This document shows positions 27,846-62,022 of a DNA stretch of 64,000 nt, piece by piece. The translations under genes and the position numbers were made by a program. Source of the DNA: Endomychus coccineus. Lineage: Eukaryota > Arthropoda > Insecta > Coleoptera > Endomychidae. Under the pieces are notes generated by a model. The model had not been told where the DNA came from and searched no databases. It saw only the letters and a program-made list of their open reading frames with translations. The stretch covers positions 177,674,868 through 177,738,867 of the forward strand of contig OY294069.1 of the NCBI GenBank assembly GCA_958510875.1. The letters are read 5' to 3'. The stretch's first letter is position 1. Each line of letters starts with the position of its first letter.

Positions 27846-27849
27846 TATA

Positions 27850-37125: not shown

Positions 37126-37434
37126 TAACACCACCGGAGACACCCACCCCGGGGCCGTCACCAGCCTCGAGGCCGTCTCACCATCCTCGCGGCCGTCACC
37201 ACCCCCGAGACCGTAACCGCCACCGGGAGTTTCACCGCCGTAGTCGCCCACCCCATCACCTCCCCCAACGCCACCGCCAGCTCTGGTGACGATTCCTGTA
37301 TCCCCCAAGACGGGGGGACAGGATTCGAAACCCACCAGAGCGTCTGGTGGTTGGGGAGCCCCAGCGGCTGTGGCGCAGACCGCCGGTACGCCGTGTCCAG
37401 CTGGGGCAACACGTCGATGAGGAGGAGGTCAACG
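37126..37434 (+). pseudogene. Alpha-family exon copy (309 nt), apparently broken, of the proline-rich microexon gene
   Basis: The segment lies between a good acceptor (tttttacag) and a gtaagt donor. Its intron upstream (actaccaaaccctattcac) matches that before 60986. It starts VTPPETPTPGPSP in phase 1 like the intact alpha exon at 60986-61267. Frame and product then diverge: a +1 shift turns the proline-rich stretch into an H/R-rich one, and a TGA at 37287 closes it. The end (PERLVVGEP, DEEEVN in the homologous frame) is still recognisable, and total length remains a multiple of three. Either this copy is dead, or including it would truncate the protein. Confidence 0.6.
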
Positions 37435-37465
37435 GTAAGTTTGAATTCTATGTTTTATATTTTAT

Positions 37466-37590
37466 CTGGGTGTATGTGTGGTTGTGCATGTGGATGTGAG
37501 TGTGAGGGTGTGTGGATGTCTGTCTAGGTGTATGTGAGTGTGTGGGCATGTGGGTGCGTGCGTTTGTGTTTGTGAGTGTGTATTAGGCTG
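37466..37590. repeat. (TG)-rich microsatellite
   Basis: Imperfect TGTG/TGAG/TATG repeats just inside the intron after the exon ending at 37434. Similar tracts follow other copies of this exon module (40275-40320, 44940-45000, 54378-54422, 55934-55954). Confidence 0.85.
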
Positions 37591-37594
37591 TGCC

Positions 37595-39420
37595 AAAAAA
37601 AAATCGATATTTTTTTATTTCGCTCTTCTTCGAGTATATCATTCCCCGTTCAAATTCATTCAGGTCCCCCAAAATTTAAACAAATCGGTTAATATTTGGA
37701 GGTGCATCAAGCCCAAAACGTGTTTTTTGAAATTTTTCTTCAATTTTTGAGAGGTTTCATAACACTGTTCTACAATAACGGGATGTTTGACACTTGGGAG
37801 ACATTATTACATTCAAACACAAAGTATTCAATGCATTTCAGTCCCCACATCCACTTTCCCACAGATATTGTTATAAAAAACTCTTTACTGAGTTTTATTC
37901 TTTAATTATGATTTGAATTAATTTGAATATTGATTTTAATATTTCAATGTTTTGAATTCTACCGGCTAGCTTTTTATTTGTATTTTAAATCTTATGTTTG
38001 TTTTGATTTGAATAATGAACTTTTACCTTTTATTTTTAATTTATTATATATGGAATTAAACACAAGGTTCAATGAATGCTAACTTTTAATATTTAAATTT
38101 CTATGACTCTATTTTTATCTCAGGTATCAATTTTAACAATTTTATGTTCAAATAGATCTACGATCTAACCTCACAATTATTTACTATTTATCTTTGTTTA
38201 CAAAGTTATAATCTACAATCTTTCTTTCAGTTTTACAGACAGATAATAATACAATGGAGAAATAACAAATAAACTTACGTTTATATCCAAGAATATGTTT
38301 TTAAAAATGTAGGCAATGTTCACTTGGCTGGATTTTCTTATTAATTTTATAATTCACTTTACCCGTAGGTAATGTGGTTACTTCTTTAGAAATCAGGAAC
38401 TGTTGATAATTGTTAACTTGTCTTATTCTTTTTCAAAAGATATAAAACCTTAAATGATGTCTTGGAACGTTGTCGAAGACTAACTATTATACGATGCTAC
38501 TTGTGAATTATGGTTATAATAACTTTTAAAAACTTTGTTCGAAGACTGGGAACACTACTTGACTTGTATAAATTACTTATTTGCTTCGGTTACTTTCAAC
38601 CTTACGAAGCTATTGGAACACTTGGGTTCACCGATGTTTATCCAAAAACTAAGGTTATGGAAATCTTTTGAGTAGCTTGAGTATCTTGACTCTTCAGATG
38701 TTGATGGCTAACTAACTTGGCTTGATCTTCAGAATCCTTTTCAAGGCCTTCAAAAAGGACGCCAAATATTTTCAAAAATAACCAATGAGGTGCTTAGTTT
38801 CCCTATCAAGAATGCTTTGTTGATTGTTGCAAACTGACAGAACTTTTACATTGTTACTAATCTGACGTCTATAAAATTGCATCGACCAATCAGAATTTAG
38901 TATTCTATAAATTTTTAATTATTGGAGATTTTCAACTTATTTTAAATGATGATGATTCCTTCTTTTTAAATTCATATTGCCTACATTTTTCCACACACTT
39001 TGGTATAAGATAACCTATGATTAGATTATTATTAATATGATTATTCCTATAATTATTATAAATTTGACAACTAATACATAATATAACATATCAATAACAT
39101 TTCTTTAACATTATGTAACTCAAATTTACTAATCCTAACTTATGTCTACAACATTTTTCAATGGTTTGTGCTATCTCATGATAGTTTTTGTAATCATTTT
39201 AATTATGATTTCTGCCTTCGTAACACTGTATGTTCATTCACTTTCACTGAAGTTCTTGTTTTACACTTTTATTCTAATTACATTGTTGTTTATTATGTTC
39301 TTCATTGTTCATTATATTATACTAACTGTTATTTAACTTTTAACATTGTTTTTAATTCCATATAGTATCTTTTTATTAATCTTTTCTGATTTTCAATGTT
39401 CGGTAAGTTCTAATTTTATC
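37595..39420. other. AT-rich sequence, no gene; possible small inverted-repeat element
   Basis: No coding motif. A perfect 15-bp inverted repeat (aaaaatgtaggcaat at 38303-38317 and its complement at 38976-38990) brackets 688 bp and may be the ends of a short transposon. Confidence 0.4.
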
Positions 39421-39423
39421 ATT

Positions 39424-39771
39424 TTATTGTTTAGGAAATGAAATCATAACAGTATATTGTTCATCGTCTCCGGCAACACTTTCATCTTCGCTTTCATCGT
39501 CAACGTCAACCTCACCTTGTTTTTCAATATCAGGTTTTTTAAAAAGCAGTTCATCTATTATTTTTACCACTTCTCTCTCAGGACAATTTGAGCAGGTTCT
39601 GAACATACACTCCTGATTTCTGAAATCACAAACAATTCTTGATATGACCTCTTTATAATCCAATGACGTGCCTACGGCTGATATTAATAACTTGAAATTT
39701 TGATGTGTAGCGCAGACACACACAGAGTGCGTTCCACTCGCACCGTGTAGCACACAGTATTTTGGTCTCAA
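39424..39771 (-). CDS. Cysteine/histidine-rich protein fragment, probably transposon-derived (115 codons)
   Basis: An open frame with CVLHGASGTHSVCVCATHQN near its start, then CDFRNQECMFRTCSNCPE, then an acidic tail (DVDDESEDESVAGDDE). The regularly placed C and H residues look like a real metal-binding fold rather than a chance frame. I have a general impression of similar G-x-H-x-V-C-V-C-x-x-H-Q-N segments in transposon-borne proteins of invertebrates, but cannot name the family. Its neighbourhood (repeat unit 39878-40170, hAT-like remnant) supports a mobile origin. The first codon shown may be internal to a longer ancestral frame. Confidence 0.45.
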   Translation of the reverse strand: MRPKYCVLHGASGTHSVCVCATHQNFKLLISAVGTSLDYKEVISRIVCDFRNQECMFRTCSNCPEREVVKIIDELLFKKPDIEKQGEVDVDDESEDESVAGDDEQYTVMISFPKQ

Positions 39772-39877
39772 TTGACAGAATTTTGTGAACCCTATTTTGT
39801 CATTAGAATTTTGTTCCTTGAAAAGAGCGTACTATTCTTTTAATGTACACAATAGCAATCGTTTCTGTTCGTAACGA

Positions 39878-40172
39878 TTTTTTGATATGCGAACTCTATT
39901 TTTTGGGTTTTTGGGAGGTTTTTAGAAAAATAACAGCCAATATACAAAGAGCATTTGAAGAAAAAATGGTACTGATTGAATTTTTCTTGATATTTTTTCA
40001 CGAGAACGTTTTGAAAAGTGCGGCTCCAACAAAAAAAAAGTTACGAAAAATCGGATTTATCATTTTACAAAAAAAAATATGGCCGCTGGGTCCAAACTAA
40101 TAAAAAATTCGAAATTTGGCAGAAAGCCATCATTTTAGTAGTAGAATCGAAAAAACCAGGAGCCGGACCATG
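39878..40172. repeat. Second copy of the hAT-associated repeat unit
   Basis: Matches 35417-35870 with an internal deletion of about 158 bp. It ends at ccaggagccggaccatga. A run of ten cytosines follows at about 40181-40190. Confidence 0.65.
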
Positions 40173-40221
40173 AGCTGACACCCCCCCCCCTGACCTGGGC
40201 TCCTTGAAAACGGAATTGCCC

Positions 40222-40521
40222 AAATAGTAATTTTGCCTGCTTATGAGCTATAATGAATTCTCGAGATATCGTTCGTGTAAATAGTGTTGGTGTGGTGTGT
40301 GGTATGTAGTGTGTATGTGTGTTTATTTTGCTTGACATATCGGAATTCATTCTCTTTTAATTGCACATTTCCAAATATATTTATTTCAAAAATGGAGACG
40401 ATACTCATTTTAAGTAATTGTTACAGATCAAGACTTAGATGTAGTCTACGTCGTACCTGATGCTCCCGGTAAGTACTAAGTACTTATGTTATTAATAATT
40501 GAGCAAGAATTAATAAGTAAT
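40222..40521. repeat. Duplicated intron-exon module carrying a beta exon
   Basis: Matches 44880-45201 and 54305-54626, including the microsatellite, the aaaatggagacgatactcat intron segment and the exon. It stops at the point where the inverted repeat 40522-40557 begins. Confidence 0.75.
40427..40468 (+). CDS. Beta-family microexon (42 nt) of the proline-rich modular gene
   Basis: Acceptor ttgttacag before, donor gtaagt after. It is read in phase 1 (one base from the previous exon completes the first codon) and ends in phase 1: 14 codons, QDLDVVYVVPDAP. Copies at 45104 and 54529 read QDLDIIYVAPDAP. Reading frame, length and splice sites are preserved while codons differ at several positions, which argues for real coding function. 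Confidence 0.6.
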
Positions 40522-40557
40522 TTGGAGCAAGTGGGGGCCGCCTACTATATAGAGCTG
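40522..40557. repeat. 36-bp inverted repeat, left copy
   Basis: Perfect reverse complement of 45819-45854 (core gcaagtgggggccgcctac). The pair encloses 5.3 kb with four exon copies. Confidence 0.8.
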
Positions 40558-41521
40558 TTTTAATCCTTAACGTGAAATTTCGGGAGCAGTCACGTCCCAA
40601 TTGTTTAACCGGAGCTAGAACTTTCCAGTTAGTTAAATCAATAAGGCTCTACCGATTAGTTTGAAGTTGTAGCTACATCAAATTCGTCATCGGTATATTC
40701 ATTATTCCGATAGTTAATGACAAAAATCGAAGAAATACTGACAAGCAGACATCATTGAGTTATCCCATTCCGTAATTAACCATTTTTCTCTCTCTAGCTT
40801 GTTTTCCAATAGTTATCCATCCATAAACCTCTATTATATTTACAGAAACTCTTGATACTTTTTCACAGATTTATTTATCTATTCGCGGTGACAGTTCAGA
40901 GTAATTGGGAATCTGTGAGCAAGTTAAGTAGTATATTAAAGTCACTTCACACTTCACAACACCACTTTTCACTATCGCAGATTTAAATTCGTATTTTAAA
41001 GCTTTCAGTTTTCATTTCTATGTACCTACATGAGGTTCTAAATAGACATTTATTCAAGAATTCTCATTACGGTAATTTTAGAGAGCTTGCAAGTTTAACT
41101 TCTTGTAATTGTTTTCTAGGTGTAATATAAAGCACCTACGCATTGAAAGTTTTTAAATATTTGATATAAGAGAGATATTGAATAAAAATTGTGAAAATAA
41201 CTAGCTCATTCCATCGCTTATTTCCCAGTGCGATAGGTCAATATTGAAGATTTTAAATTTGTTGAAATTCTTATGACAGTGAGCGGAGTGAGCATGACGA
41301 TAACAATTAGCTCTGAACCATTGAGATCTGATTCCGTGAACAAAGCTATTATTATCGCCCTAGTTTGTCAATGAATACTATTCGATTTGATTCTGTAAAA
41401 ATTTAGACTTCGTAAACTTCCTTCTTTCTGGAGATGAATAAAGAATATCAACTTCCTTGTTTATTTATTACCATTAATTTGTCTATTGAACGTTCGCTCA
41501 ATATATATTTTTTTCTTTCAG

Positions 41522-41590
41522 CTAAAGGAATTTCGCCACCGGCTACGCCACCACCGGCCACGCCCTCTCCTCCGGTGCCGATGCAGACAA
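41522..41590 (+). CDS. Gamma-family microexon (69 nt) of the proline-rich modular gene
   Basis: Acceptor ttctttcag, donor gtaagt, phase 1 on both sides, 23 codons: AKGISPPATPPPATPSPPVP then MQT. The PPPATP repeat unit is encoded by a short DNA repeat (ccaccggccacgc). The duplicate at 47476 has the same start and the SPPVPMQ segment but 24 more codons. Low-complexity proline repeats of this kind usually form extended, disordered or extracellular segments; the protein's location is unknown. Confidence 0.6.
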
Positions 41591-41697
41591 GTAAGTTTAA
41601 ATTAGATGTATCTTAATTTTAAGAATGTACACTTATCCAATTGTATAAATCAAATACTCCAAAGTATATTCAAATCCAAACATATTCCTCGATCAAA

Positions 41698-41803
41698 TTT
41701 AGCTTGTTCCTTCCAGCGTTTTATCATCAGCTGACCTATAGCATGCAGGATACCGTCAAATATAGGTCACCTGGTGATGAAACGTAAGATGGAACAAGCT
41801 AAA
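41698..41803. repeat. Short hairpin element, copy 1
   Basis: Two 43-nt arms (tttagcttgttccttccagc / taagatggaacaagctaaa) around a loop of about 20 nt. It recurs at 47724-47829 in duplication A. The terminal palindromic look suggests a tiny MITE. Confidence 0.75.
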
Positions 41804-42229
41804 CATCAATTTGTTTTAAATATACTTTTGTTATACTAACAATGGTATGGTTTTCTAGAGGACAAATATTATGTTTACCTTCAGTCATTTCTTCATGAAA
41901 AAAATTATTGCTGAAAAGGAAGTAGTAATGATAATTTATTGGGAAACAAAATATAATATAGCTTATTAATATTTATCAGTAACATTTCGGAAAAATTAGA
42001 CCAACCCAATCGAAAAATGATGTAACCTAAACATCTGCCACAAAACTTATTTCATCTCAAAAGATCTTTCACAAAATTGAATAAGAAAATGAACGAATTT
42101 TTAAATAAAATAACTATTATAAGTTCGATTTTCAATAGTTTAATAAATAAATGTAACTATTATTCCGCCAGCATAGCAGCTTTTTCAAACAAACATTACA
42201 AAGTACTCTGTACGATCGGGCGGTTATAA

Positions 42230-43340
42230 TGGCAGAACTCCAAACATGTTAACAGTACTCCAGGACAGGTCGAATCTGTGCTTTGTAGATTATGAGGAGC
42301 CGCTGGGATGTAAAGTAGCCCTTGCACGAACTAGAATACCAACTTGATCCCGTGTATGGATATAGAAGACTGCATAGGAATAGAGCTGTACCTGATATCA
42401 TCGTAATAGAAATTGTGAGATTCGCCTTCCTAGAGAAGATGTAGTTTTCTCTACTAGATTATCAGATCCCCATTTCAAAATCGTTGCCAGATCTTCATTG
42501 ATTACATCATATGAAGGGGTACCATCATCTGTAAAGCTGAGAACGGAACAGTTGGCCACTTCCAACAGATCGTTGATATGAAGCAGAAACATGTACCTAG
42601 ACAGATCCCTGTGGATCAGCAGTGTTGATAGACATTGTATCCGAGGATACTCCATCAACCATCACATGGAGTGATCATCTCAGAGAAAATTCGACAAGGT
42701 TGAGGTCGCAAACCATATGACGGAAGTTTCTCAAGAAGGGGGGCCCATGTTTTTCAGTAGATCTCTACCATACATGTGTTATGTGAGTTGTGAGCAAGCA
42801 GGTCTCCTGTTCACGATTTTGGAGCCCTCTAGGTGTTGGATGAGCTCGATTTTGATTGCTTTCTCCATCGCTTTAGAGATCGCAGTTAATAGTGCAATGG
42901 GTCTATAATTATAAGGAATGATCTAATTTTTGGAATTGGTTGGACTGTAACTGTCTTTCAGTTGGAAGGAAACACACCAAGTTTGTATGAAAGAGTAAAC
43001 ATCCTGCAGAAAACTGTTGTCAATCCAGGAGCATATTCCTTGTGAACGACAGGTGGAATTCCGTCTGAGGTCATGGCCTTCTTGGTATTGAGGTCAAGCT
43101 CAAGGCACCTAACTGTGCGCTGACGGAAGACAATGGCATATGGCTATTGATGACAGCAATTTTAGTAGGATCCTTCCCTTGTGGAGCCAAAGAGAAATTT
43201 GTTGCAAACATTTCAGCGAAAAGGTTGACTTTTTTTGTGGCGTAGCCAGTGTGCCATCAAATTCGGTTAGGAGAGGGGATAAGTCGGTTAGCTCGTTAAG
43301 GGTGGCTATGTAAGTTATCTGCAAACGTTTTTGCATTTAA
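42230..43340 (-). pseudogene. Decayed LINE reverse-transcriptase fragment (jockey/CR1-like), copy 1
   Basis: Minus-strand translation gives, in order, LLTAISKAMEKAIKIELIQH (around 42880, RT fingers region), LLHINDLLEVAN and VLSFTDDGTP (around 42540, the catalytic box with FTDD in place of the usual YADD/FADD), and LIIYKAQIRPVLEYC at about 42290-42250 (the thumb region). Frames are broken by shifts and stops between these patches. It is duplicated with its surroundings at 48256-49366. Confidence 0.75.
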
Positions 43341-44289
43341 TTGTTATTTAAATAATAATTACGATACCAACATTATAATAGAAAACAGAGAAAACTTTCA
43401 AAAATATCTTCTCATCATTATCAATATGTAATCTAAAGAATGCATACCGTTGAATTCCCTTATAAATTGAACTAACAAAGCTAACACAATTTTGAAAAAG
43501 TTGAAGAAAACACCAGCTAAAGAATATCAATGTAGAGTGAATGTTTGTTTAAAACCAAGCACATAGTCCTTTGAAAGATCCATAAAACGTAATTCTAAAT
43601 GTTCATGTATTATATTGTATATCGTAATTATTTAAGTGGACCACGAATTAAACTTAATGCGTTCATAATGAGTTTAAGAGTAGGTATTTTAAAACTGCCA
43701 CCAGATGGGCTCGTATGGTTCACAGATTGACCACAGTTTGAAACCTTCTTAGGACTTGAAGTAATCAAGATTATATTTTCCTTTCTGATGATGTCCGACA
43801 CTTCAAATGTAAGGAATCTGGACATATAGCATCAAGATACCCAAAGCCCAATCTAACTTTTGAAATGTGCAACTGAATTAAATAGTAAACATTCATTTTC
43901 AATATATCAGAAGTCTTCACATATGGACATCATTACCCACAAAAAATCAACATAAACTGGCTGCTCTCCAAAGCATGATACATAGACTTGTTACTATCCC
44001 CATGTCAGAATTGAATTTTCAATTATAAAACAGATAGCAAGTAATAACTGATATAACAAAAATTTTGTAATTGATTTATTTAAGAAATAAGATTATAATG
44101 AAGCAATGAAGTTAGTTTACCCAATACAGTTAAGACTAATAATTATAGATCAATAATGTATTTGGTAAACTTTCTGATAATGTATGCAATTTACTGAAAA
44201 AACACAATGTTATCACATCTTTTGGAACAAATAATACTGTAGACAAATAAATATTAAAAACAACAAAGATAAGAATAAAAAAGATCAAG

Positions 44290-44587
44290 AATCAGGTATA
44301 CACAAAGTAGAGTGTTAATATAGGCCAGACTGGAAGATATTTCAAAGCTAAAATTTAATTTGAACAAAGGAGATTCAAAAGTTGTAAACCATATTGATGA
44401 AGCTGATCATCATTTCAAAGATGATTTTGAGATTCTCCATAAGTCAGTTAAATGTAAAGTATTAAACAACTCAACATATTATAAGCCCAAAAAGCGAAGA
44501 GATGTATCAATCATAGATGTAATATGTGAAATAAAATTCTGTTTAGTATCAAAAACGTTTCCAAGATCTTGTTATCTTTTGAAGTGA
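44290..44587 (+). pseudogene. Penelope-like element fragment with GIY-YIG endonuclease remnant, copy 1
   Basis: The plus strand reads SGIHKVEC, then after a deletion and shift NIGQTGRYFKAKI, then KVVNHIDEADHHFKDDFEIL followed by H. These match the GIY-YIG endonuclease layout of Penelope-like retroelements (SGIYKL-C, YIGQTGR-F--R, H--E--H-----EILH). The second tyrosine of the motif is lost (NIG for YIG) and the frame is broken, so it is dead. The copy at 53729-54026 is nearly the same. Confidence 0.72.
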
Positions 44588-44807
44588 ACGAACATCTTCA
44601 TTATTGATAACATATAGCAAATCATTTATGGTTTTGGATCTACTAAATGAAATAGCAAAACATTTATTCACATTCGATATCTTGAAGCTTGTAACTACCA
44701 AACCCTATATTCACACTATTCTTTCATATCTTCCATATTATCTCCGTTCAAATTGTCAAATTTTAATACCAATTATCGATAACTAAAATTTGGTTACATT
44801 TTCACAG

Positions 44808-44858
44808 CCCCGAAAATTGAACCACCTCCACTGAGACGAAGGCGCATTCTGGGAACTA
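44808..44858 (+). pseudogene. Alpha-type microexon with lost splice donor, copy 1
   Basis: Upstream intron and acceptor (tttcacag) match the alpha exons at 55790 and 60986. The phase-1 frame reads APKIEPPPLRRRRILGT. The donor expected here, by comparison with 55850 (gtaagtaaaatttt), is ctaagtaaaatttt. The next GT, at 44860, would make a 52-nt exon and break the phase. I infer a disabled exon. The copy at 54247 shares the change, so the mutation preceded duplication B. Confidence 0.55.
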
Positions 44859-45103
44859 AGTAAAATTTTAAATATTCGTAAATAGTAATTTCGCCTGCTT
44901 ATGAGCTGTAGAATTCTCGAGATATCGTTCATGTAAATAGTGTTGGTGTGGTGTGTGCTATGTGGTGGAAGTGGTGTGGTGTGTAGTGTGTATGTGTGTA
45001 TATTTTGCTTGACATATCGGAATTCATTCTCTTTTAGTTGCACATTTCCAAATATATTTATTTCAAAAATGGAGACGATACTCATTTTAACTAATTGTTA
45101 CAG

Positions 45104-45145
45104 ATCAGGACTTAGATATCATTTACGTCGCACCTGATGCTCCAG
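45104..45145 (+). CDS. Beta-family microexon (42 nt)
   Basis: Acceptor ttgttacag, donor gtaagt, phase 1-1, 14 codons (QDLDIIYVAPDAP). It is identical in protein to 54529-54570 and close to 40427-40468. The next exon follows after an intron of only 250 bp. Confidence 0.6.
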
Positions 45146-45395
45146 GTAAGTACTAAGTATACTTGTGTTAGTAATTATTGAGCAATAATTATTAAGTAAT
45201 TTGTTGATCAATCATCAGAGATTGCTAGAAATGAGGAAATTAAACAATTTCATAAGTACCTAATTGATTTTTTCAAATTTTATTTTTACATTGACAAAAA
45301 CAACGATATTCTACCAATCAAGTGGATATTTACCATTCAACTGTGAAACATTCTGTATGATACAAAATTACTAAATTTTATTTTCTATTTTTCAG

Positions 45396-45434
45396 CAATT
45401 GAACCTGCAGTGCCAAGGCCTATTCTAATTCCTA
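45396..45434 (+). CDS. Epsilon-like microexon (39 nt)
   Basis: Acceptor atttttcag, donor gtaagt, phase 1-1, 13 codons: AIEPAVPRPILIP. The intron end before it (ttctgtatgatacaa...actaaattttattttct) matches those before 51409 and 60536, so it belongs to that family although its peptide has diverged. Confidence 0.55.
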
Positions 45435-46766: not shown

Positions 46767-47475
46767 TTATCGATCCATAAACCTCTATTATATTTACAGA
46801 AACTCTTGATACTTTTTCATAGATTTATTTATCTATTCGCGGTGACAGTTCAGAGTAATTGGGAATCTGTGAGCAAGTTAAGTAGTATATTAAAGTCACT
46901 TCACACTTCACAACACCACTTTTCACTATCGCAGATTTAAATTCGTATTTTAAAGCTTTCAGTTTTCATTTCTATGTACCTACATGAGGTTCTAAATAGA
47001 CATTTATTCAAGAATTCTCATTACGGTAATTTTAGAGAGCTTGCAAGTTTAACTTCTTGTAATTGTTTTCTAGGTGTAATATAAAGCACCTACGCATTGA
47101 AAGTTTTTAAATATTTGATATAAGAGAGATATTGAATAAAAATTGTGAAAATAACTAGCTCATTCCATCGCTTATTTCCCAGTGCGATAGGTCAATATTG
47201 AAGATTTTAAATTTGTTGAAATTCTTATGACAGTGAGCGGAGTGAGCATGACGATAACAATTAGCTCTGAACCATTGAGATCTGATTCCGTGAACAAAGC
47301 TATTATTATCGCCCTAGTTTGTCAATGAATACTATTCGATTTGATTCTGTAAAAATTTAGACTTCGTAAACTTCCTTCTTTCTGGAGATGAATAAAGAAT
47401 ATCAACTTCCTTGTTTATTTATTACCATTAATTTGTCTATTGAACGTTCGCTCAATATATATTTTTTTCTTTCAG

Positions 47476-47616
47476 CTAAAGGAATTTTAAAACATAAAAC
47501 GCCGCCACCGGCCACGCCACGAGTTACGCCGCCACCGGCTACGCCACCACCGCCAACGCCATCTCCTCCGGTGCCGATGCAGTGGCCACCTTCACCGGTG
47601 CCAAATATTGAGAGAA
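47476..47616 (+). CDS. Gamma-family exon (141 nt), expanded
   Basis: Acceptor ttctttcag, donor gtaagt, phase 1-1, 47 codons. It starts AKGILKHKTPPPATPRVT, continues with PPPATPPPPTPSPPVPMQ and ends with a new WPPSPVPNIER segment. Compared with the 69-nt copy at 41522, the extra 72 nt comprise additional PPPATP-type repeats and the new tail, and keep the frame exactly. The flanking introns of the two copies differ by almost no indels. Confidence 0.62.
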
Positions 47617-47723
47617 GTAAGTTTAAATTAGATGTATCTTAATTTTAAGAATGTACACTTATCCAATTGTATAAATCAAATACTCCAAAGTATATTCAAA
47701 TCCAAACATATTCCTCGATCAAA

Positions 47724-47829
47724 TTTAGCTTGCTCCTTCTAGCGTTTTATCATCAGCTGACCTATAGCATGCAGGATACCGTCAAATATAGGTCACCTGG
47801 TGATGAAACGTAAGATGGAACAAGCTAAA
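47724..47829. repeat. Short hairpin element, copy 2
   Basis: Duplicate of 41698-41803, carried by duplication A. Confidence 0.75.
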
Positions 47830-48255
47830 AATCAATTTGTTTTAAATATACTTTTGTTATACTAACAATGGTATGGTTTTCTAGAGGACAAATATTATGT
47901 TTACCTTCATTCATTTCTTCATGAAAAAAATTATTGCTGAAAAGGAAGTGGTAATGATAATTTATTGGGAAACAAAATATAATATAGCTTATTAATATTT
48001 ATCAGTAACATTTCGGAAAAATTAGACCAACCCAATCGAAAAATGATGTAACCTAAACATCTGCCACAAAACTTATTTCATCTCAAAAGATCTTTCACAA
48101 AATTGAATAAGAAAATGAACGAATTTTTAAATAAAATAACTATTATAAGTTCGATTTTCAATAGATTGATAAATAAATGTAACTATTATTCCGCCAGCAT
48201 AGCAGCTTTTTCAAACAAACATTACAAAGTACTCTGTACGATCGGGCGGTTATAA

Positions 48256-49366
48256 TGGCAGAACTCCAAACATGTTAACAGTACTCCAGGACAGGTCGAA
48301 TCTGTGCTTTGTAGATTATGAGGAGCCGCTGGGATGTAAAGTAGCCCTTGCACGAACTAGAATACCAACTTGATCCCGTGTATGGATATAGAAGACTGCA
48401 TAGGAATAGAGCTGTACCTGATATCATCGTAATAGAAATTGTGAGATTCGCCTTCCTAGAGAAGATGTAGTTTTCTCTACTAGATTATCAGATCCCCATT
48501 TCAAAATCGTTGCCAGATCTTCATTGATTACATCATATGAAGGGGTACCATCATCTGTAAAGCTGTGAACGGAACAGTTGGCCACTTCCAACAGATCGTT
48601 GATATGAAGCAGAAACATGTACCTAGACAGATCCCTGTGGATCAGCAGTGTTGATAGACATTGTATCCGAGGATACTCCATCAACCATCACATGGAGTGA
48701 TCATCTCAGAGAAAATTCGACAAGGTTGAGGTCGCAAACCATATGACGGAAGTTTCTCAAGAAGGGGGGCCCATGTTTTTCAGTAGATCTCTACCATACA
48801 TGTGTTATGTGAGTTGTGAGCAAGCAGGTCTCCTGTTCACGATTTTGGAGCCCTCTAGGTGTTGGATGAGCTCGATTTTGATTGCTTTCTCCATCGCTTC
48901 AGAGATCGCAGTTAATAGTGCAATGGGTCTATAATTATAAGGAATGATCTAATTTTTGGAATTGGTTGGACTGTAACTGTCTTTCAGTTGGAAGGAAACA
49001 CACCAAGTTTGTATGAAAGAGTAAACATCCTGCAGAAAACTGTTGTCAATCCAGGAGCATATTCCTTGTGAACGACAGGTGGAATTCCGTCTGAGGTCAT
49101 GGCCTTCTTGGTATTGAGGTCAAGCTCAAGGCACCTAATTGTGCGCTGACGGAAGACAATGGCATATGGCTATTGATGACAGCAATGTTAGGAGGATCCT
49201 TCCCTTGTGGAGCCAAAGAGAAATTTGTTGGAAACATTTCAGCGAAAAGGTTGACTTTTTTTGTGGCGTAGCCAGTGTGCCATCAAATTGGGTTAGGGGA
49301 GGGGATAAGTCGGTTAGCTCGTTAAGGGTGGCTATGTAAGTTATCTGCAAACGTTTTTGCATTTAA
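48256..49366 (-). pseudogene. Decayed LINE reverse-transcriptase fragment (jockey/CR1-like), copy 2
   Basis: Copy of 42230-43340 within duplication A, with the same patches (SFTDDGTP, KAQIRPVLEYC on the minus strand) and the same breaks. Confidence 0.75.
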
Positions 49367-49693
49367 TTGTTATTTAAATAATAATTACGATACCAACATT
49401 ATAATAGAAAACAGAGAAAACTTTCAAAAATATCTTCTCATCATTATCAATATGTAATCTAAAGAATGCATACCGTTGAATTCCCTTATAAATTGAACTA
49501 ACAAAGCTAACACAATTTTGAAAAAGTTGAAGAAAACGCCAGCTAAAGAATATCAATGTAGAGTGAATGTTTGTTTAAAACCAAGCACATAGTCCTTTGA
49601 AAGATCCATAAAACGTAATTCTAAATGTTCATGTATTATATTGTATATCGTAATTATTTAAGTGGACCACGAATTAAACTTAATGCGTTCATA

Positions 49694-50419
49694 ATGAGTT
49701 TAAGAGTAGGTATTTTAAAACTGCCACCAGATGTGCTCGTATGGTTCACAGATGGGTCCAAGATAGGTCAGACTTCTGGGGCGGGAGTGTACCTGAAAAA
49801 GCTAAAGATCACTACATCAGTGAAGGTAGACGCTTTATGCACTGTTTTTCAGACGAAGGTCTACGCAATACTGATTTGTACTATGGAAAACCTGCGAAGA
49901 AACTATGTAAATAGGCGCATATATATTTGCACAGACAGCCGGTCGGCTCTGGGAGCTCTCAAATCAGCCAGAGTCACATCAAGGCTTGTCAAAGAATGCA
50001 GGGATACACTGGCTGAACTAGCTAGGAGGAATAAAGTTCAACTCATCTGGGTCTCTGGACACAGCGGAGTTGTAGGAAACGGAATAGCCGACTCACTGGT
50101 TAGGCGAGGGTCGTCTAACGCCGCTATCGGGACGGAGCCAATGGTCGTTCTATCAAACTACGTGGGGGGTCTCGCCCTTCTGGGTCAACTGAATAAAGAG
50201 TTGTCTAGACTGTGGCGAGAATCACCACGCATGAGGCAGTTCAAACTCTTCATCAAAGAGCTGCTGCCTAGGCTCTCAAAGAAACTCCTTTCTCTGAACA
50301 AACATCCCCACACTATGGCCATCATAGATGACCCAGTATGTAGGAAATGCAGAGAAGCTCTGACCACGGGACGCTCAATGGGCCCAATTAAGTGGCCTAA
50401 GTGTATTTGGGGGGTCTAG
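49694..50419 (+). pseudogene. LINE RNase H domain, open frame but with a lost catalytic residue
   Basis: A frame open from 49625 to 50419 (264 codons) contains an RNase H domain of the kind found at the C-terminus of R1/I/jockey-group LINEs. Numbering from the first ATG: D43 in LVWFTDGSK, D104 in IYICTDSRSAL, and H146/D156 in VSGHSGVVGNGIAD. The expected catalytic glutamate in (A/S)E-V-Y-A is lysine (QTKVYAI, K78). A C-x2-C at the end (DPVCRKC) fits the terminal zinc-knuckle of these elements. The first ~23 residues are probably not element-derived. It is followed by a frame break at WGV-stop. Relic, but recently open. Confidence 0.75.
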
Positions 50420-50949: not shown

Positions 50950-51000
50950 TAGAAAGCCCGAGCCCAGAGATACCACCGGAGACATTCGAGGTCACTGCTG
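50950..51000 (+). CDS. Delta-family microexon (51 nt)
   Basis: Acceptor tttttatag, donor gtaagt, phase 1-1, 17 codons: VESPSPEIPPETFEVTA. It is paired with 57028-57078, whose upstream intron (tgtatttcaaaaatgtataaaatattcat) matches. Proline- and glutamate-rich. Confidence 0.6.
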
Positions 51001-51408: not shown

Positions 51409-51450
51409 TTATACACCCACAGGTTCTACTTCCCGAGAACCAAGTTCAGA
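51409..51450 (+). CDS. Epsilon-family microexon (42 nt)
   Basis: Acceptor tgtttcag, donor gtaagt, phase 1-1, 14 codons: VIHPQVLLPENQVQ. Its paralogue at 60536 reads DIHPEASAVPLPEEPTQ, with about 200 bp of matching upstream intron. Confidence 0.6.
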
Positions 51451-52870: not shown

Positions 52871-53728
52871 AGATGTTTTACATCATTCAAACCTGCATAT
52901 CCCGTGAATTGTGGGTTCAGGTTATGAATAACAATACTTGACAGAAAGTCAAGGTTGGGTTCGCCAAGGATAAAAATGAAATGACAATTTAACTTCCACT
53001 TATACTTTGATAAGGATGAATTACTAATATGTCCAAGTGAGATGTGGTTTATGCACAATGCTACACAGTCTTAAACTGTCGTGATCATTCAACTATTCTG
53101 AAACTGTATTATTGGACATTTTCATCGGTGGTAAGCTATGATTATTGATTGACCACAGTTTGAAACCTTCTTAGGACTTGAAGTAATCAAGATTATATTT
53201 TCCTTTCTGATGATGTCCGACACTTCTAATGTAAGGAATCTGGACATATAGCATCAAGATACCCAAAGCCCAATCTAACTTTTGAAATGTGCAACTGAAT
53301 TAAATAGTAAACATTCATTTTCAATATATCAGAAGTCTTCACATATGGACATCATTACCCACAAAAAATCAACATAAACTGGCTGCTCTCCAAAGCATGA
53401 TACATAGACTTGTTACTATCCCCATGTCAGAATTGAATTTTCAATTATAAAACAGATAGCAAGTAATAACTGATATAACAAAAATTTTGTAATTGATTTA
53501 TTTAAGAAATAAGATTATAATGAAGCAATGAAGTTAGTTTACCCAATACAGTTAAAACTAATAATTATAGATCAATAATGTATTTGGTAAACTTTCTGAT
53601 AATGTATGCAATTTACTGAAAAAACACAATGCTATCACATCTTTTGGAACAAATAATACTGTAGACAAATAAATATTAAAAACAACAAAGATAAGAATAA
53701 AAAAGATCAAGAATCAGGAATACACAAA

Positions 53729-54026
53729 GTAGAGTGTAAATATAGGCCAGACTGGAAGATATTTCAAAGCCAAAATTTAATTTAAAGAACATTTTAATTT
53801 GAACAAAGGAGATTCAAAAGTTGTAAACCATATTAATGAAGCTGATCATCATTTCAAAGATGATTTTGAGATTCTCCATAAGTCAGTTAAATGTAAAGTA
53901 TTAAACAACTCAACATATTATAAGCCCAAAAAGCGAAGAGATGTATCAATCATAGATGTAATATGTGAAATAAAATTCTGTTTAGTATCAAAAACGTTTC
54001 CAATATCTTGTTATCTTTTGAAGTGA
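53729..54026 (+). pseudogene. Penelope-like element fragment with GIY-YIG remnant, copy 2
   Basis: Same patches as 44290-44587 (IGQTGRYFKA, VNHINEADHHF), with a 17-bp insertion near 53784. Confidence 0.7.
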
Positions 54027-54246
54027 ACGAACATCTTCATTATTGATAACATATAGCAAATCATTTATGGTTTTGGATCTACTAAATGAAATAGCAAAAC
54101 ATTTATTCACATTCGATATCTTGAAGCTTGTAACTACCAAACCCTATATTCACACTATTCTTTCATATCTTCCATATTATCTCCGTTCAAATTGTCAAAT
54201 TTTAATACCAATTATCGATAACTAAAATTTGGTTACATTTTCACAG

Positions 54247-54297
54247 CCCCGAAAATTGAACCACCTCCACTGAGACGAAGGCGCATTCTGGGAACTA
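54247..54297 (+). pseudogene. Alpha-type microexon with lost splice donor, copy 2
   Basis: Identical in sequence to 44808-44858, including ctaagt in place of the gtaagt donor. Confidence 0.55.
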
Positions 54298-54528
54298 AGT
54301 AAAATTTTAAATATTCGTAAATAGTAATTTCGCCTGCTTATGAGCTGTAGAATTCTCGAGATATCGTTCATGTAAATAGTGTTGGTGTGGTGTGTGGTAT
54401 GTGGTGTGTAGTGTGTATGTGTGTATATTTTGCTTGACATATCGGAATTCATTCTCTCTTAATTGCACATTTCAAAATATATTTATTTCAAAAATGGAGA
54501 CGATACTCATTTTAACTAATTGTTACAG

Positions 54529-54570
54529 ATCAGGACTTAGATATCATTTACGTCGCACCTGATGCTCCAG
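54529..54570 (+). CDS. Beta-family microexon (42 nt)
   Basis: Acceptor ttgttacag, donor gtaagt, phase 1-1, QDLDIIYVAPDAP. Nucleotide-identical to 45104-45145. Confidence 0.6.
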
Positions 54571-54929
54571 GTAAGTACTAAGTATACTTGTGTTAGTAAT
54601 TATTGAGCAATATGTATTAAGTAATTTGTTGATCAATCAACAAAATATCGGACTTGTTCTGAAGGAACATAAAAAACCGTCCATTTGTTTGTTATTGTAG
54701 CGTTTTAAAACTATTTAATTGAAAAAATGGACTGTTAAAATAAGACTTTTTACTAATACATTTTTCCCAAAAAATGATTTGTTTTGGTTTAACGAATAAA
54801 AAAGCTAGTACTTATTTCTGATGAACACCCACCATGGATCTATAGAAAGGGCGAGATCGCGCAGCTTTCTGCGAATTCTAGAAAAGTCAATGAATTCGTA
54901 AGTGTGATCATCAATCAGACGAATAGCTA

Positions 54930-55789: not shown

Positions 55790-55849
55790 TAACTCCACCG
55801 GAGGCTCCAACCCGGCAGCCACCGAGGAAAATAAAAAAAAGGTACGTTG
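55790..55849 (+). CDS. Alpha-family microexon (60 nt)
   Basis: Acceptor tttttacag, donor gtaagt, phase 1-1, 20 codons: VTPPEAPTRQPPRKIKKRYV. It shares the VTPPE start with 37126 and VTPPG with 60986. Unlike the others it ends strongly basic. Confidence 0.6.
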
Positions 55850-55954: not shown

Positions 55955-56962
55955 TTTTTTTTTTGCGAGGATATGGGGAAATCTTCAAAAGACGCTATGA
56001 AGCCCGCGCTTCACACTGTGTGGGATTTCTACCCACTAAAACCGCCTCCCGTTACACCTCAGCACTCAGCCGGACCGCCGTCAGGCATTACTTCGCGGGT
56101 AACGAAATGACTGTTATGCGTCCTTTTCTGGTCTAGCTATTCACCGTCTGCTTCTACGCCACGGGTTGGCCTCTTCTCTCGTTGTTTATACGTCTGAGCA
56201 CCTTCATTACAGTGGCCGTAAAATCGGACACTGCGTTCCAGGTGGTCTGTGACTCAACGATATTCTCCGGGGATAACTGATGCTGTAGATTTCCTTGCAG
56301 GATCCCGCATGGTCCGTTGATGCGCGGACAATGGCACAGAACGTGCTCTGCGTCATCGGGCACTGGTAGGCAGGTAGGACACGTCTAGTCGAAAACTGTG
56401 CAGATACGCCCTAAAGCACCCATGTCTTGTTAGCAGCTGCACGAGGTAGTGATCTACCTCTGCGTGCCTACAAAGGGTAATATCTGGGATGAGGCGATGG
56501 GTCCACCGCCACTTGGTTTATGCATTCCAGAGCTCCCTCCAACGTTGGGCATAATTCTAGCCAGTACTTTGAACCGCAACCTGGCATCTATCTGGACTCC
56601 CAGGTAGCTCAATGATGGCTGCGATGGTATGTCGCAGTCCCCAACGGTGAGTGTCACAGTTTCTGTTGTTTTCCTGCTGGTCACCAGTATTGTCTCAGTT
56701 TTATGGTCTGCCAATTGCATGCCATTCGCCGAGAGCCACCGGAGGATTGAGACGACAGACTCGTTTGCTTTCTGCGTGGCTTCTTCCAAGTACTTGGCAT
56801 TGAAAACCACGGCAATATCGTCTGTGAAGCAACAGCCCTGCATCGTACATGATGTTCCTCAATAAGGGTCCTAGTACCAGGCCTTGTGGGACGCCTCCTG
56901 TGGTGTTGTGAGCTGTACAATGATGCCCTCTTGCTGAAGTAGCTCGCTATCATCCTTGTAAT
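55955..56962 (-). mobile_element. 5'-truncated R1-clade LINE inserted in an ACAY-type microsatellite (Waldo-like?)
   Basis: The minus strand reads, from its 5' side, IASYFSKRASLYSS, CCFTDDIAVVFNAKYLEEAT (RT catalytic box), ANGMQLADHKTETILVTSRK, LSYLGVQIDARLRFK, and finally DDAEHVLCHCPRINGPCGIL (the C-terminal zinc knuckle). These are typical of the R1 clade. Frameshifts and stops show it is dead. A run of ten A (minus strand) at 55955-55964 marks the 3' end, lying directly against (ACAC/ATAC)n. Waldo elements of this clade are known to target ACAY repeats, so the site fits that lineage; the assignment is inference. 5' truncation is at about 56962. Confidence 0.75.
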
Positions 56963-57027: not shown

Positions 57028-57078
57028 AGGTAAGCCCGAGGCCCGAACAAAGGTCACCGACCATTGTGGCCATTGCTG
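57028..57078 (+). pseudogene. Delta-family microexon with mutated donor
   Basis: Acceptor tttttatag, then a 51-nt open phase-1 frame EVSPRPEQRSPTIVAIA. Compared with 50950-51000 the donor reads ataagt instead of gtaagt, at the same place and with matching intron beyond it (actttgactgtattattaatta). A GT-to-AT change should abolish normal splicing, so this exon is probably skipped. Confidence 0.55.
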
Positions 57079-57079
57079 A

Positions 57080-58590: not shown

Positions 58591-58596
58591 CAACGG

Positions 58597-59364: not shown

Positions 59365-60340
59365 GCTAAAAGAATCGCCGAAAAGTCGCGCACACAGCGC
59401 TCTCTACCGCATAATCTGAAACTAGGTAAGTTGTCTTATTCGGCGTCTTCTGAAACCCTCTAGTGCCAGATTTCAATAAAATATCTGTAGCTGCACAGGA
59501 TCTACAGCAAAATTTCGTTTAAAAAAATTAAATTCAACACGCCCTGTATCTCCGAAACGAAAAAAAATAGGACCATAGTTTATATGAAAAATCTGAATAT
59601 TTTTGTCAAATCTACCGTCCCCTGCATTTGCGGAAGGTCTTTCTGAAACATCCTGTATATAATAGTATTCATTATTGGACGATTGAATATCATTTGAATA
59701 TAACACTAGAAATGAAACCTGCGATCAATCAGCAAATTTTACGTTCTAGAAGTTTTTCTTTTAGTGTGATTAAAGTTATAATATTCCTTGTTTTTAACAT
59801 AGCAAAAGTAACATTCTAAATTGCACTCTGTATAAAATCGTCAACATTTAAAACCTCTTTCGTGTGTTTCACGACCCTGGAACGTGTTGCCAACTGTTAC
59901 AACGGAATATTCCTGGTTTGACGGAAATAGCTTGAAACTTCTTTAGAGAAATTGTTGAAATGATTTTATCACATTTAATTACAAAATATGTCGTCATTTC
60001 CTGCTTATAGTATACAGTTATATTATTGTTGTCACTGATCAAAATCTCTTTAACCTCATTAAGTTAAAAAAATTGTTTATTTTTCAAAATATGCTTATTT
60101 GGCTGTATGAATCTTTTCATCATCGAATATACTTTGAGAAATACATACTGTGGCGAACGACAGTTCAAAAAAGTTTTTTATTTTTTCAAAATTTATTATC
60201 ACATAAAATAAATACACAGAAATATACAGCTTGAGTTTTACGAATAGCTACATTCAAACCTCTTGTGAGTTGAAACGAGCCAAACGCATGTATTGCTGCA
60301 CAAGATAGGCAAGTAAACCGCTTTCCACTGTTTAAAAGGT
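59365..60340. other. Intronic sequence, transposon-like traces
   Basis: Contains ccctgtat-type tips at about 59543 and 59651, probably ends of small CAGGG-type elements. No gene is seen. Confidence 0.4.
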
Positions 60341-60535
60341 TTAGGCGCTTTAATAAATCACACCATCCTAGCTCCAATCTTTGTCGAACCTTCATCCCAA
60401 TTAATTGAATCTGAATAAACCGGTCTCTTAAACTCAACCTGTATATAGTCATTTTCTCATAAACGAACAAGGATTGGTGTTCATTCAACTTTCTGTATGA
60501 TGCAACCTCACTAAATGGTATCTTCTATGTTTCAG

Positions 60536-60586
60536 ATATACACCCAGAGGCTTCTGCGGTTCCTCTACCCGAGGAGCCAACGCAGA
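60536..60586 (+). CDS. Epsilon-family microexon (51 nt)
   Basis: Acceptor tgtttcag, donor gtaagt, phase 1-1, 17 codons: DIHPEASAVPLPEEPTQ. About 200 bp of upstream intron (from gcgctttaataaatcacac at about 60340) match the region before 51409. Confidence 0.62.
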
Positions 60587-60612
60587 GTAAGTTACTGCTT
60601 TAGAATAACACT

Positions 60613-60643
60613 ACTGTGTGTGTGTGTTTGTGTGTGTGTTTAG
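60613..60643. repeat. (TG)n microsatellite
   Basis: tgtgtgtgtgtttgtgtgtgtgt, just after the epsilon exon. Confidence 0.85.
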
Positions 60644-60985
60644 GCCCAAAATAATATGTTTTTATTCTTGCGAATTTTTCTGAAAAATGGTTATAGTGGC
60701 GGAGTGGAAATGTAAAAGTTGGGGAAAAAATTAAGATAAATGTATGATCGAAATACAATTTTTTGTTATTTTCATCTTTTTTGTCAATTGCGCTTTAAAT
60801 AATTGTTGATAACATATTTCAAAAAATATACGGTTTTTGGTTTACTGCATGAGATGCAAAACATTTATTCACATTCGATATCTTGAAGCGTATACTACCA
60901 AACCCTATTCATACTATTTATTTCTTTCATATTTTTCATATTAGCTCCGTTCATGATGAACTAAAATTTGGTTACATTTTTACAG

Positions 60986-61267
60986 TAACACCACCGGGAA
61001 CACCCACCCCAGAGCCGCCACCACCCTCGGCGCCTTCACCGCCCCCTGGGCCATCACCGCCCCCGGGATCTTCCCCGTCGATCACCCCAACCCCTCCCCC
61101 AACACCACCACCAGTTCTGGTGGCGAGTCCTGTTCCCCCAAGACGGGTGGACAGGATTAGAAACCCACCAGAGCGCCTGGTGGTTGGTGAACCCCGGCAG
61201 CAGCCGCGCAGACCGCCTGTGCGGCGTGTGCCGTTGGGGCAACATATAGATGAGGTGGAGGTGAACG
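60986..61267 (+). CDS. Alpha-family long exon (282 nt), proline-rich
   Basis: Acceptor tttttacag, donor gtaagt, phase 1-1, 94 codons, no stops. The first half is almost pure proline repeats (VTPPGTPTPEPPPPSAPSPP, then SPPPGSSPS and TPTPPPTPPP). The second half is basic and arginine-rich (PPRRVDRIRNPPERLVVGEP, RRPPVRRVPLGQ) and closes with acidic IDEVEVN. The decayed copy at 37126 shares the beginning and end. Retaining an open frame over 94 codons of a repeat-rich exon while the sister copy has lost it supports function. An open frame also runs on into the flanking introns, but the splice signals are clear. Confidence 0.72.
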
Positions 61268-61884
61268 GTAAGTTTGTTTTCTATGTTTTATATTTTAAAA
61301 GAATTTCTAGTATAGTTCACCGGAATTAGCATCTGAGGTCGAAGTAAATAGTACAGCAATGACCTATATCAAACTGAAGTTAATTACATGCGAGATAAAT
61401 CTGTCAAAACCGGAAGTAAAACAAAGGGTGATTTCCTAGAAATAGATATATCAATATTCATGCTTTTGTATTTTTTCGCATTTCCTCTGAAAATATACAT
61501 TTTAGAGAAAGAATACACAGGGGAAAATTGTAGAGCGGAATTTCCCATGGATATGAGTTATTTAAATTTTCATTTAACATACAAGAGTGCGCTTAAGTAA
61601 ATATGTATATGTTTTTTACATTTACATTTTAGTGTTAATTGTTATGTTAATTAGTGTTTCCATGTTATCTAGAAAAGAATAGATAACTTTTATTAATGAA
61701 ATGCGTCTGCAGCCGACTTGTGTTTTTGCTGCTATCATAAATGAGACTCTTTTGGGAATGCAACCTTTCCGATTTCCTAGTTTTCTAAAAATGAACCGGA
61801 AAATGTGATTTCAATAAAATTGTTATGTGATCGAGATTCGTCTATTCTTATTTTTATCTCATTTCGTTTGTTCTTTTTTTGCAG
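61268..61884. other. Intron, nothing recognised
   Basis: 617 bp between two good exons, gtaagt to tttttttgcag. Short frames only. Confidence 0.5.
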
Positions 61885-62022
61885 ATCCAATGATATACGA
61901 AAAATTCAGGTGGGGGGAGACGGGGAACCCCCACCTAAGGTCAACAAAAATTGTGAACTGTGGCCCGATGGCCATCACTTATGTAAAACCACAGGACCGT
62001 GGTGGAGATGGAGCGGGATACG
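61885..62022 (+). CDS. Unique exon (138 nt) of the modular gene, unrecognised domain
   Basis: Acceptor tttttttgcag, donor gtaagt, phase 1-1, 46 codons. The peptide starts DPMIYEKFRWGETGNPHLRS, continues KIVNCGPMAITYVKPQDRGG and ends DGAGY. It differs from all upstream exons: mixed composition, one cysteine, aromatic residues and a glycine-rich end. I do not recognise the family. It looks like the first part of a folded domain spread over several exons beyond the window. It shares the phase-1 rule and follows the alpha exon by 617 bp, so I infer it belongs to the same gene. Confidence 0.6.

What the first reader, a model, noticed from the sequence alone, without database searches (positions are those of the whole stretch)
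37126..62022. Modular insect gene built from duplicated, phase-1 symmetric microexons encoding proline-rich peptides
Seen directly: at least 12 short segments on one strand, each between a pyrimidine-tract AG and a GTAAGT, each an exact multiple of three (39, 42, 51, 60, 69, 138, 141, 282 nt), and each open in the same phase (1-1). They group into families by peptide and by flanking intron: alpha 37126, 55790, 60986 and the disabled 44808, 54247; beta 40427, 45104, 54529; gamma 41522, 47476; delta 50950, 57028; epsilon 45396, 51409, 60536. Known parallels are the micro-exon genes of schistosomes and the bicycle genes of aphids, but the peptides here match neither as far as I can tell. Because any subset keeps frame, one locus could make many length variants of a proline-rich protein by exon choice.
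Basis: partly seen in the sequence, partly recalled or inferred. Interest (0 to 1): 0.88.

Follow-up and report, generated by a model that had tools for sequence, protein, structure and literature searches.

The report
Fast-changing exon cassettes, conserved introns
In this stretch of probably insect DNA, twelve short predicted coding exons, most of them copied in tandem into families, share one reading phase, and in most copy pairs compared the exon has changed several times faster than the introns around it; they would likely be joined into a proline-rich protein whose pieces could be added or dropped without breaking it.

Summary
Twelve intact + strand segments (39-282 nt) lie between a splice-acceptor-like AG and GTAAGT, are multiples of three, and are open with introns after codon position 1. 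They form five families (alpha to epsilon), duplicated in tandem, plus one single exon, zeta (61885-62022). Copies show protein-level constraint in the claimed frame only (pN/pS 0.47, p = 0.0004; other frames 1.54 and 0.84), so these are very probably coding exons. No homologue was found in Pfam, PDB or a protein database (length-limited searches). The phase equals that of aphid bicycle genes; the inverted conservation resembles Hessian fly SSSGP genes and snake-venom segment switching; the proline-rich product fits neither. Best reading: the middle of a larger, probably secreted, exon-cassette gene with exon birth, switching and death. Transcription, exon choice, secretion and species are untested.

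The parts
37126..37434 (+). alpha-long exon copy, broken (in-frame stop); upstream intron conserved with other alphas
40427..40468 (+). beta exon, 42 nt, QDLDVVYVVPDAP
41522..41590 (+). gamma exon, 69 nt, KGISPPATPPPATPSPPVPMQT
44808..44855 (+). alpha copy, 48 nt, frame open but donor GT lost (CT)
45104..45145 (+). beta exon, 42 nt, QDLDIIYVAPDAP
45396..45434 (+). epsilon exon, 39 nt, IEPAVPRPILIP
47476..47616 (+). gamma exon, 141 nt, 72 nt longer than 41522, in a block whose flanks differ at 19 of 2846 positions
50950..51000 (+). delta exon, 51 nt, ESPSPEIPPETFEVTA
51409..51450 (+). epsilon exon, 42 nt, IHPQVLLPENQVQ
54247..54294 (+). alpha copy, identical to 44808 over the exon, donor lost
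54529..54570 (+). beta exon, 42 nt, identical to 45104
55790..55849 (+). alpha exon, 60 nt, TPPEAPTRQPPRKIKKRYV
57028..57078 (+). delta copy, 51 nt, frame open but donor GT lost (AT)
60536..60586 (+). epsilon exon, 51 nt, IHPEASAVPLPEEPTQ
60986..61267 (+). alpha-long exon, 282 nt, intact; proline-rich first half, arginine-rich second half
61885..62022 (+). zeta exon, 138 nt, no second copy found in the window; highest summed splice score of the 12; holds the only cysteine of the model
40813..43727 (+). segmental duplicate (with 46767-49753) holding gamma; flanks 99.3% identical, exon not
43725..45217 (+). segmental duplicate (with 53147-54642) holding a broken alpha and beta; exons identical here

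Best explanation
This is most likely the middle of one larger insect gene that would encode a disordered, proline-rich and probably secreted protein from small interchangeable exons, and in pooled copy pairs these exons have diverged about four times more than the introns beside them. Shown here: the + strand holds the modules in the order alpha-beta-gamma, alpha-beta-epsilon-gamma-delta-epsilon, alpha-beta-alpha-delta-epsilon-alpha-long-zeta. Every intact exon is a multiple of three and starts at codon position 2, so any subset keeps the frame. Copies are constrained at the protein level in that frame only. Exon copies diverge, lengthen or are replaced while the flanking introns stay alike. 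Four of the 16 copies are broken, three of them by loss of the splice donor with the frame still open (two of these three are one event, duplicated). Inferred: the module order reflects about three tandem rounds; the exons are spliced into one message; losing an exon costs little because skipping it keeps the frame, so the locus acts as an exon treadmill (duplicate, diverge, switch off); exon choice gives length variants; the product faces a changing partner (host, prey, mate or microbe).
For: Structure and strand bias. Families and blocks. Frame-specific constraint: pooled pS 0.311, pN 0.146, ratio 0.47, Fisher p = 0.0004, against 1.54 and 0.84 in the other two frames (7 pairs, two with a broken member; without those two, S 12.8/47.1, N 16.2/123.9, ratio 0.48, p = 0.022). 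Exon versus flank: 9 pairs examined, 7 with exon above flank at uncorrected p < 0.05 (gamma 0.0018, beta 0.0087, delta 0.003, epsilon 0.0016 and 0.04, alpha-long 0.0003, alpha 44808/37126 0.038); 4 of 9 pass a Bonferroni cut of 0.0056. Mantel-Haenszel odds ratio 3.85, chi-square 50 over 6 of those 9 pairs. Silent exon sites against flanks: odds ratio 7.8, chi-square 63 over the same 6 pairs, 5 of 6 at p < 0.05. Gamma: 6 events in the 69-nt exon, at most 3 in any 69-nt window of the 2.9 kb block that does not overlap it. Exon replacement: in all 3 comparisons of the 44808 alpha exon with other alphas the exon scores no better than shuffles (0.88, 0.92 and 0.27 of 500 shuffles reach it), while the 60 nt upstream beat 500 of 500; in the other 3 of 6 alpha comparisons the exons do beat shuffles (0.000, 0.000, 0.016 reach them). 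Composition: P 27.3%, one Cys, PxxP 31 times.
Against: No RNA evidence. No first exon with a signal peptide: one weak + strand candidate, which reads through the gamma acceptor; no last exon: the one candidate is zeta read past its own donor. Secretion is therefore unproven. pN/pS below 1 does not show positive selection, and silent sites outrun introns too, which selection on the protein alone cannot explain. 2 of 9 pairs do not show faster exons: beta 45104/54529 (0 of 42 against 15 of 1437) and alpha 44808/55790 (p = 0.26). Pairs are not all independent (several copies occur in two pairs). Flanks of the older pairs were picked by local alignment, which favours conserved flanks. Delta, epsilon and 44808 exon alignments are uncertain; epsilon 45396/51409 has 0 silent changes at 3.0 sites.
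Confidence: 0.5

Rival explanations
1. The exons are the elastic, disordered spacer of a giant structural protein (a titin/Sallimus PEVK-like or cuticle-linker region), in which only proline-rich composition matters; sequence drifts freely and exon choice sets length.
For: P+E+V+K is 45.6-49.6% in every 250-residue window of the model, above the 40% cut-off used for insect titins in PMC12063666 (passages read). Symmetric exons of one phase suit length variants. pN/pS below 1 with free in-frame indels suits a composition-constrained spacer.
Against: K is only 3.0% and E 5.4%; E, V and K together make 17.4%. In Drosophila Sls much of the PEVK lies in large exons (1700 residues in exon 32, PMC12063666). 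No Ig or Fn3 hit in the model. A spacer does not explain exons, silent sites included, outrunning introns.
Confidence: 0.22
2. A new lineage of the micro-exon effector genes already known in plant-feeding insects (bicycle genes of aphids, SSSGP genes of gall midges), which has become proline-rich.
For: Many small internal exons starting at codon position 2, exactly the bicycle phase (PMC9168663). Conserved introns with diverged exons, and many tiny exons (35 introns in about 950 coding nt), as in SSSGP-2 (PMC2955719). With the coefficients printed in PMC9168663, the nine exons under 100 nt score 0.79, above its 0.72 cut-off (end exons assumed 60 nt each).
Against: All 12 exons score 0.0001 on the same model (gene incomplete, so both scores are weak). 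One Cys and so no CYC motif. Bicycle proteins are saposin-like folds (PMC13041983 abstract), which 27% proline does not suit. The 16 SSSGP pairs tabulated have dN/dS above 1; here pN/pS is below 1. Taxon unknown.
Confidence: 0.1
3. A decaying gene: an old proline-rich gene, scattered by duplications and transposons, that is no longer translated; the purifying selection seen is a memory.
For: 4 of 16 copies are broken; transposon pieces lie between exons; no ends found; no homologue found.
Against: All 12 intact copies keep frame and GTAAGT at once; the recent gamma pair (flanks 0.7% apart) differs by 72 nt of indels and both copies stay open.
Confidence: 0.12

Closest known systems
Bicycle and megacycle genes of aphids, phylloxerans and scale insects (PMC9168663 passages; PMC13041983 abstract)
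   Same: Many small internal exons that start at codon position 2; very large members exist (megacycle 118 exons, about 100 kb); fast-changing peptides.
   Different: No CYC motif, one Cys, 27% proline; exon families duplicated within the locus; fold class unlikely to match (not tested); the classifier result depends on which exons are counted.
SSSGP genes of Hessian fly, above all SSSGP-2 (PMC2955719, abstract and sections 5-7)
   Same: Non-coding parts conserved, coding parts diversified; SSSGP-2 members are said to have 35 introns in about 950 coding nt.
   Different: There the pattern lies between tandem genes, with dN/dS above 1; here it lies between exon copies of one locus, with pN/pS 0.47.
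Accelerated segment switch in exons (ASSET) of snake venom genes (PMC2711939 passages)
   Same: Exon segments replaced by unrelated sequence while introns remain alike (over 85% there; 85% and 89% in the upstream flanks of alpha 44808 with 37126 and 60986 here, 78% with 55790).
   Different: Cysteine-scaffold toxins of snakes; relation neither tested nor implied.
Micro-exon genes (MEG) of schistosomes (PMC4350168 passages)
   Same: Very small symmetric exons that allow exon choice.
   Different: Described as restricted to platyhelminths and all with a signal peptide; peptides not compared here beyond the general searches.
Titin/Sallimus PEVK regions (PMC12063666 passages)
   Same: Proline-rich disordered spacer, variable exon use.
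   Different: Lysine- and glutamate-poor here; no Ig/Fn3 domain in the model.

Membership tests
Bicycle genes | Many small internal exons almost all starting at codon position 2 | tested here: met
   12 of 12 intact exons; definition from PMC9168663
Bicycle genes | Gene-structure classifier above 0.72 | tested here: inconclusive
   0.0001 with all 12 exons, 0.79 with the nine under 100 nt; gene incomplete, end exons assumed
Bicycle genes | CYC motif (absent in some members) | tested here: not met
   one Cys in 333 residues
Bicycle genes | Saposin-like fold | not tested
   no structure prediction run; 27.3% proline speaks against it
SSSGP genes | Non-coding parts conserved, mature coding parts diversified | tested here: met
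   7 of 9 pairs; odds ratio 3.85 over 6 of the 9
SSSGP genes | dN/dS above 1 in moderately diverged pairs | tested here: not met
   pooled pN/pS 0.47
SSSGP genes | Conserved signal-peptide region | tested here: inconclusive
   no convincing one in the window; gene incomplete
Schistosome MEGs | Very small symmetric exons make up most of the coding region | tested here: inconclusive
   all symmetric, median 51 nt, but three of 12 are 138-282 nt and hold 561 of 999 nt
Schistosome MEGs | Platyhelminth genome, signal peptide | tested here: inconclusive
   the named hits of a retroelement ORF are insects; no signal exon found
Titin-like PEVK | over 40% P+E+V+K in 250-residue windows | tested here: met
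   45.6-49.6%, carried mostly by proline
Titin-like PEVK | Ig/Fn3 domains in the same protein | tested here: inconclusive
   none in the 12-exon model; [quoted passage not shown]

The most novel reading that the evidence does not exclude
The locus is a cassette gene in which diversification is confined to exons by a process that is not plain positive selection: exon sequence, silent sites included, is rewritten or exchanged inside an intron frame that is kept or homogenised, and unwanted cassettes are retired by losing only the splice donor. That would be a within-gene diversity generator in an animal outside the immune system.
Probability: 0.22. Interest if true: 0.85.

Novelty: new variant of a known kind. 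Interest (0 to 1): 0.58.

Why it matters
Aphids (bicycle genes), gall midges (SSSGP-2) and schistosomes (MEG) are each described as building fast-changing, host-facing proteins from many small exons, and why this design recurs is, to my knowledge, unsettled. This locus would add a proline-rich case with exon families copied inside one gene, where exons change faster than introns even at silent sites. It makes the puzzle of coding regions outrunning introns directly testable, because intact, switched-off and replaced copies of the same exon sit side by side.

Tried and rejected
Protein homology: the 333-residue model gave no Pfam match at E <= 1, no PDB match at E <= 0.01, and none at E <= 0.01 among the 7983 best word-sharing candidates that were scored out of 5.8 billion proteins (a capped list); its last 98 residues gave none at E <= 0.1 among 100 candidates. 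Both protein searches admit only proteins of about 183-583 residues, so a much longer homologue would be missed. Viral contigs were searched with the alpha-long exon only: none. Rfam at gathering scores and tRNAs: none.

Positive selection as the sole cause: rejected, pN/pS is below 1 in the claimed frame. CpG mutability as the sole cause: rejected, exon columns outside CpG differ at 68 of 411 against 74 of 3537 in flanks. Repeat slippage as the sole cause: it could explain the length changes of gamma and alpha-long, hardly beta; judged by eye, not tested. A Dscam-like pairing code: of 18 inverted pairs, two join the conserved upstream flank of beta 45104 to 43858-43877 and to its duplicate 53280-53299 (18 of 20 bases; the only sites at 16 of 20 or better in 36-62.5 kb); the flank letters are nearly the same at all three betas. 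Not followed further, so such a code is not excluded. Proline-rich antimicrobial precursor (apidaecin-like, recalled): considered because of the arginine/proline-rich end of alpha-long; not tested, and acidic beta exons do not suit it.

Literature: the rows listed by searches (at most 8-20 rows each; up to 151 papers held the terms; one search found none) showed no title on an insect proline-rich micro-exon gene; most listed papers were not opened, and the library is open-access only. Papers: PMC2955719 abstract, outline and sections 5-7; found passages of PMC9168663, PMC4350168, PMC12063666 and PMC2711939; outline and abstract of PMC13041983. All others were seen as listings.


Full report
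What is there. The window (64 kb, source not given) begins with 22.8 kb of a 344-bp satellite (66 copies), then a mariner-like transposon, then from about 37 kb a region in which short coding-like segments recur on the + strand. I looked at each coordinate of the finding. Twelve segments are intact: 40427-40468, 41522-41590, 45104-45145, 45396-45434, 47476-47616, 50950-51000, 51409-51450, 54529-54570, 55790-55849, 60536-60586, 60986-61267 and 61885-62022. All start after AG, end before GTAAGT, are multiples of three and are open when the intron falls after the first base of a codon. Four further copies are broken: 37126 by an in-frame stop; 44808 and 54247 (same exon letters, so one event copied by duplication) and 57028 by loss of the donor GT, with the frame still open.

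More than chance. GTAAGT occurs 20 times on the + strand of 36.0-62.5 kb and 3 times on the - strand (about 9 expected from base composition); 13 of the 20 are the donors named here, including that of broken 37126. None of the other 7 closes a phase-1 symmetric open segment of 20-310 nt. Splice-matrix scans: a strict first version found only zeta of the 12 (4 open segments on +, 0 on -). A version loosened with the claimed exons in view gives 22 open segments at a summed score of 9 on the + strand, 11 of them phase-1 symmetric and 9 of those claimed exons, against 2 and 1 on the - strand; three of the 12 exons stay below that score. The strand contrast is the part of this that was not tuned.

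They code. Seven pairs of copies were aligned and silent and replacement changes counted in three frames. In the claimed frame pS is 0.311 and pN 0.146 (ratio 0.47, p = 0.0004); in the other frames the ratio is 1.54 and 0.84. Two of the seven pairs contain a broken member; without them the ratio is 0.48, p = 0.022. A protein has therefore been kept here, at least until recently.

Exons outrun introns. In nine pairs I compared exon and flanking intron. Exon against flank differences: gamma 4/69 and 2 indels against 19/2846 and none; beta 40427/45104 7/42 against 12/259; delta 11/45 against 6/97; epsilon 51409/60536 11/42 against 17/217; epsilon 45396/51409 9/27 against 18/114; alpha-long 47/282 against 9/163; alpha 44808/37126 6/23 against 16/160. 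Those seven have p < 0.05 uncorrected; four (gamma, delta, epsilon 51409/60536, alpha-long) pass a Bonferroni cut for nine tests. Two do not show it: beta 45104/54529 has 0/42 against 15/1437, alpha 44808/55790 has 5/24 against 19/139 (p = 0.26). Over six pairs (left out: the young beta block and the two 44808 comparisons) the Mantel-Haenszel odds ratio is 3.85 with chi-square 50. In the gamma block no 69-nt window clear of the exon comes near it: 6 events against at most 3. The three beta copies are equally far apart upstream (2, 3, 3 per 100) but not in the exon (7, 7, 0 of 42). The alpha exon at 44808 is no more like the three other alphas than shuffled letters, although the 60 nt before it are strongly alike; the other three alpha comparisons do show exon likeness. 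So one alpha exon has been replaced while its frame was kept.

Silent sites too. pS against flank divergence: beta 0.44 against 0.046, gamma 0.11 against 0.007, delta 0.55 against 0.062, epsilon 51409/60536 0.31 against 0.078, alpha-long 0.29 against 0.055; epsilon 45396/51409 has 0 of 3.0 silent sites changed. Five of these six pairs have p < 0.05, pooled odds ratio 7.8; delta and alpha-long each contain a broken member. Selection for new amino acids cannot be the whole cause. Candidates are conversion that homogenises introns but stops at heterologous exons (conversion tracts of this kind are discussed for SSSGP in PMC2955719), exchange of exon-sized patches between copies, or constraint on the flanks. 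CpG sites do not explain it. This stays open.

History. The order of modules reads alpha-beta-gamma, alpha-beta-epsilon-gamma-delta-epsilon, alpha-beta-alpha-delta-epsilon-alpha-long-zeta, which I read as about three tandem rounds with losses and insertions; the blocks 40813-43727 / 46767-49753 and 43725-45217 / 53147-54642 are recent (97% over all). Gamma and alpha-long appear to have grown by proline-rich internal repeats (by eye). Three of the four broken copies are off at the donor with the frame open. Since every exon is symmetric, losing one should do little harm; that is inference.

What it makes. Joined in order, the intact exons give 333 residues with 27.3% proline, one cysteine, 31 PxxP, without a match in Pfam, PDB, or the scored candidates among proteins of about 183-583 residues. 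That database does hold insects: of 9 hits of a retroelement ORF of the window, the named ones are Aromia moschata, Phthorimaea operculella and Cataglyphis niger, which is why I call the source probably an insect. No convincing signal-peptide exon or last exon was found, so the gene probably runs beyond what the window shows, and secretion is a guess from phase and pace.

Comparison. The exon phase is the same as in bicycle genes, which start internal exons at codon position 2 (PMC9168663), but there is no CYC motif, and a saposin-like fold (PMC13041983 abstract) is improbable at this proline content, though not tested. The inverted conservation is that of SSSGP genes (PMC2955719) and of venom segment switching (PMC2711939), but with pN/pS below 1. 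The composition passes a published PEVK cut-off (PMC12063666) mainly through proline. None of the memberships can be claimed; it looks like a micro-exon effector gene in structure and like SSSGP genes in its inverted conservation.

Limits. No RNA, no relatives, no species. Exons are short, pairs overlap, and flank choice by local alignment favours conserved flanks for the older pairs; gamma and beta, whose matched flanks run to 2846 and 259 positions, depend on that least.

Noticed in passing
1-22768: 344-bp satellite, 66 copies, 97% matches, ending 14 kb before the first exon copy.
   Followed up: partly
25583-27849: Mariner-like element with 484-nt inverted repeats 99% alike, TA at both ends and an uninterrupted 363-residue transposase frame (DUF4817, DDE_3); it may have moved recently.
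   Followed up: partly
49625-50419 and 56454-56858: Retroelement pieces: RNase H on the + strand, reverse transcriptase on the - strand, lying between the exons.
   Followed up: partly
41434-41590: An ATG frame runs through the gamma acceptor into the exon with a hydrophobic start (MNKEYQLPCLFITINL...); also open at 47476. Either chance from the pyrimidine tract or an alternative start with a signal-like end.
   Followed up: no
43858-43877, 45033-45052, 53280-53299: The conserved upstream flank of beta is complementary (18 of 20) to one site and its duplicate, about 1.2 kb upstream; possible intron pairing, possibly chance.
   Followed up: partly
41698-41803 and 47724-47829: Hairpin of two 43-nt arms, 20 nt apart, about 100 nt after both gamma exons; MITE-like.
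   Followed up: no
35414-35649 and 39877-40113: Repeat pair 97% alike just upstream of where the homology around beta 40427 starts (40222); perhaps a transposon that cut off an alpha copy there.
   Followed up: no
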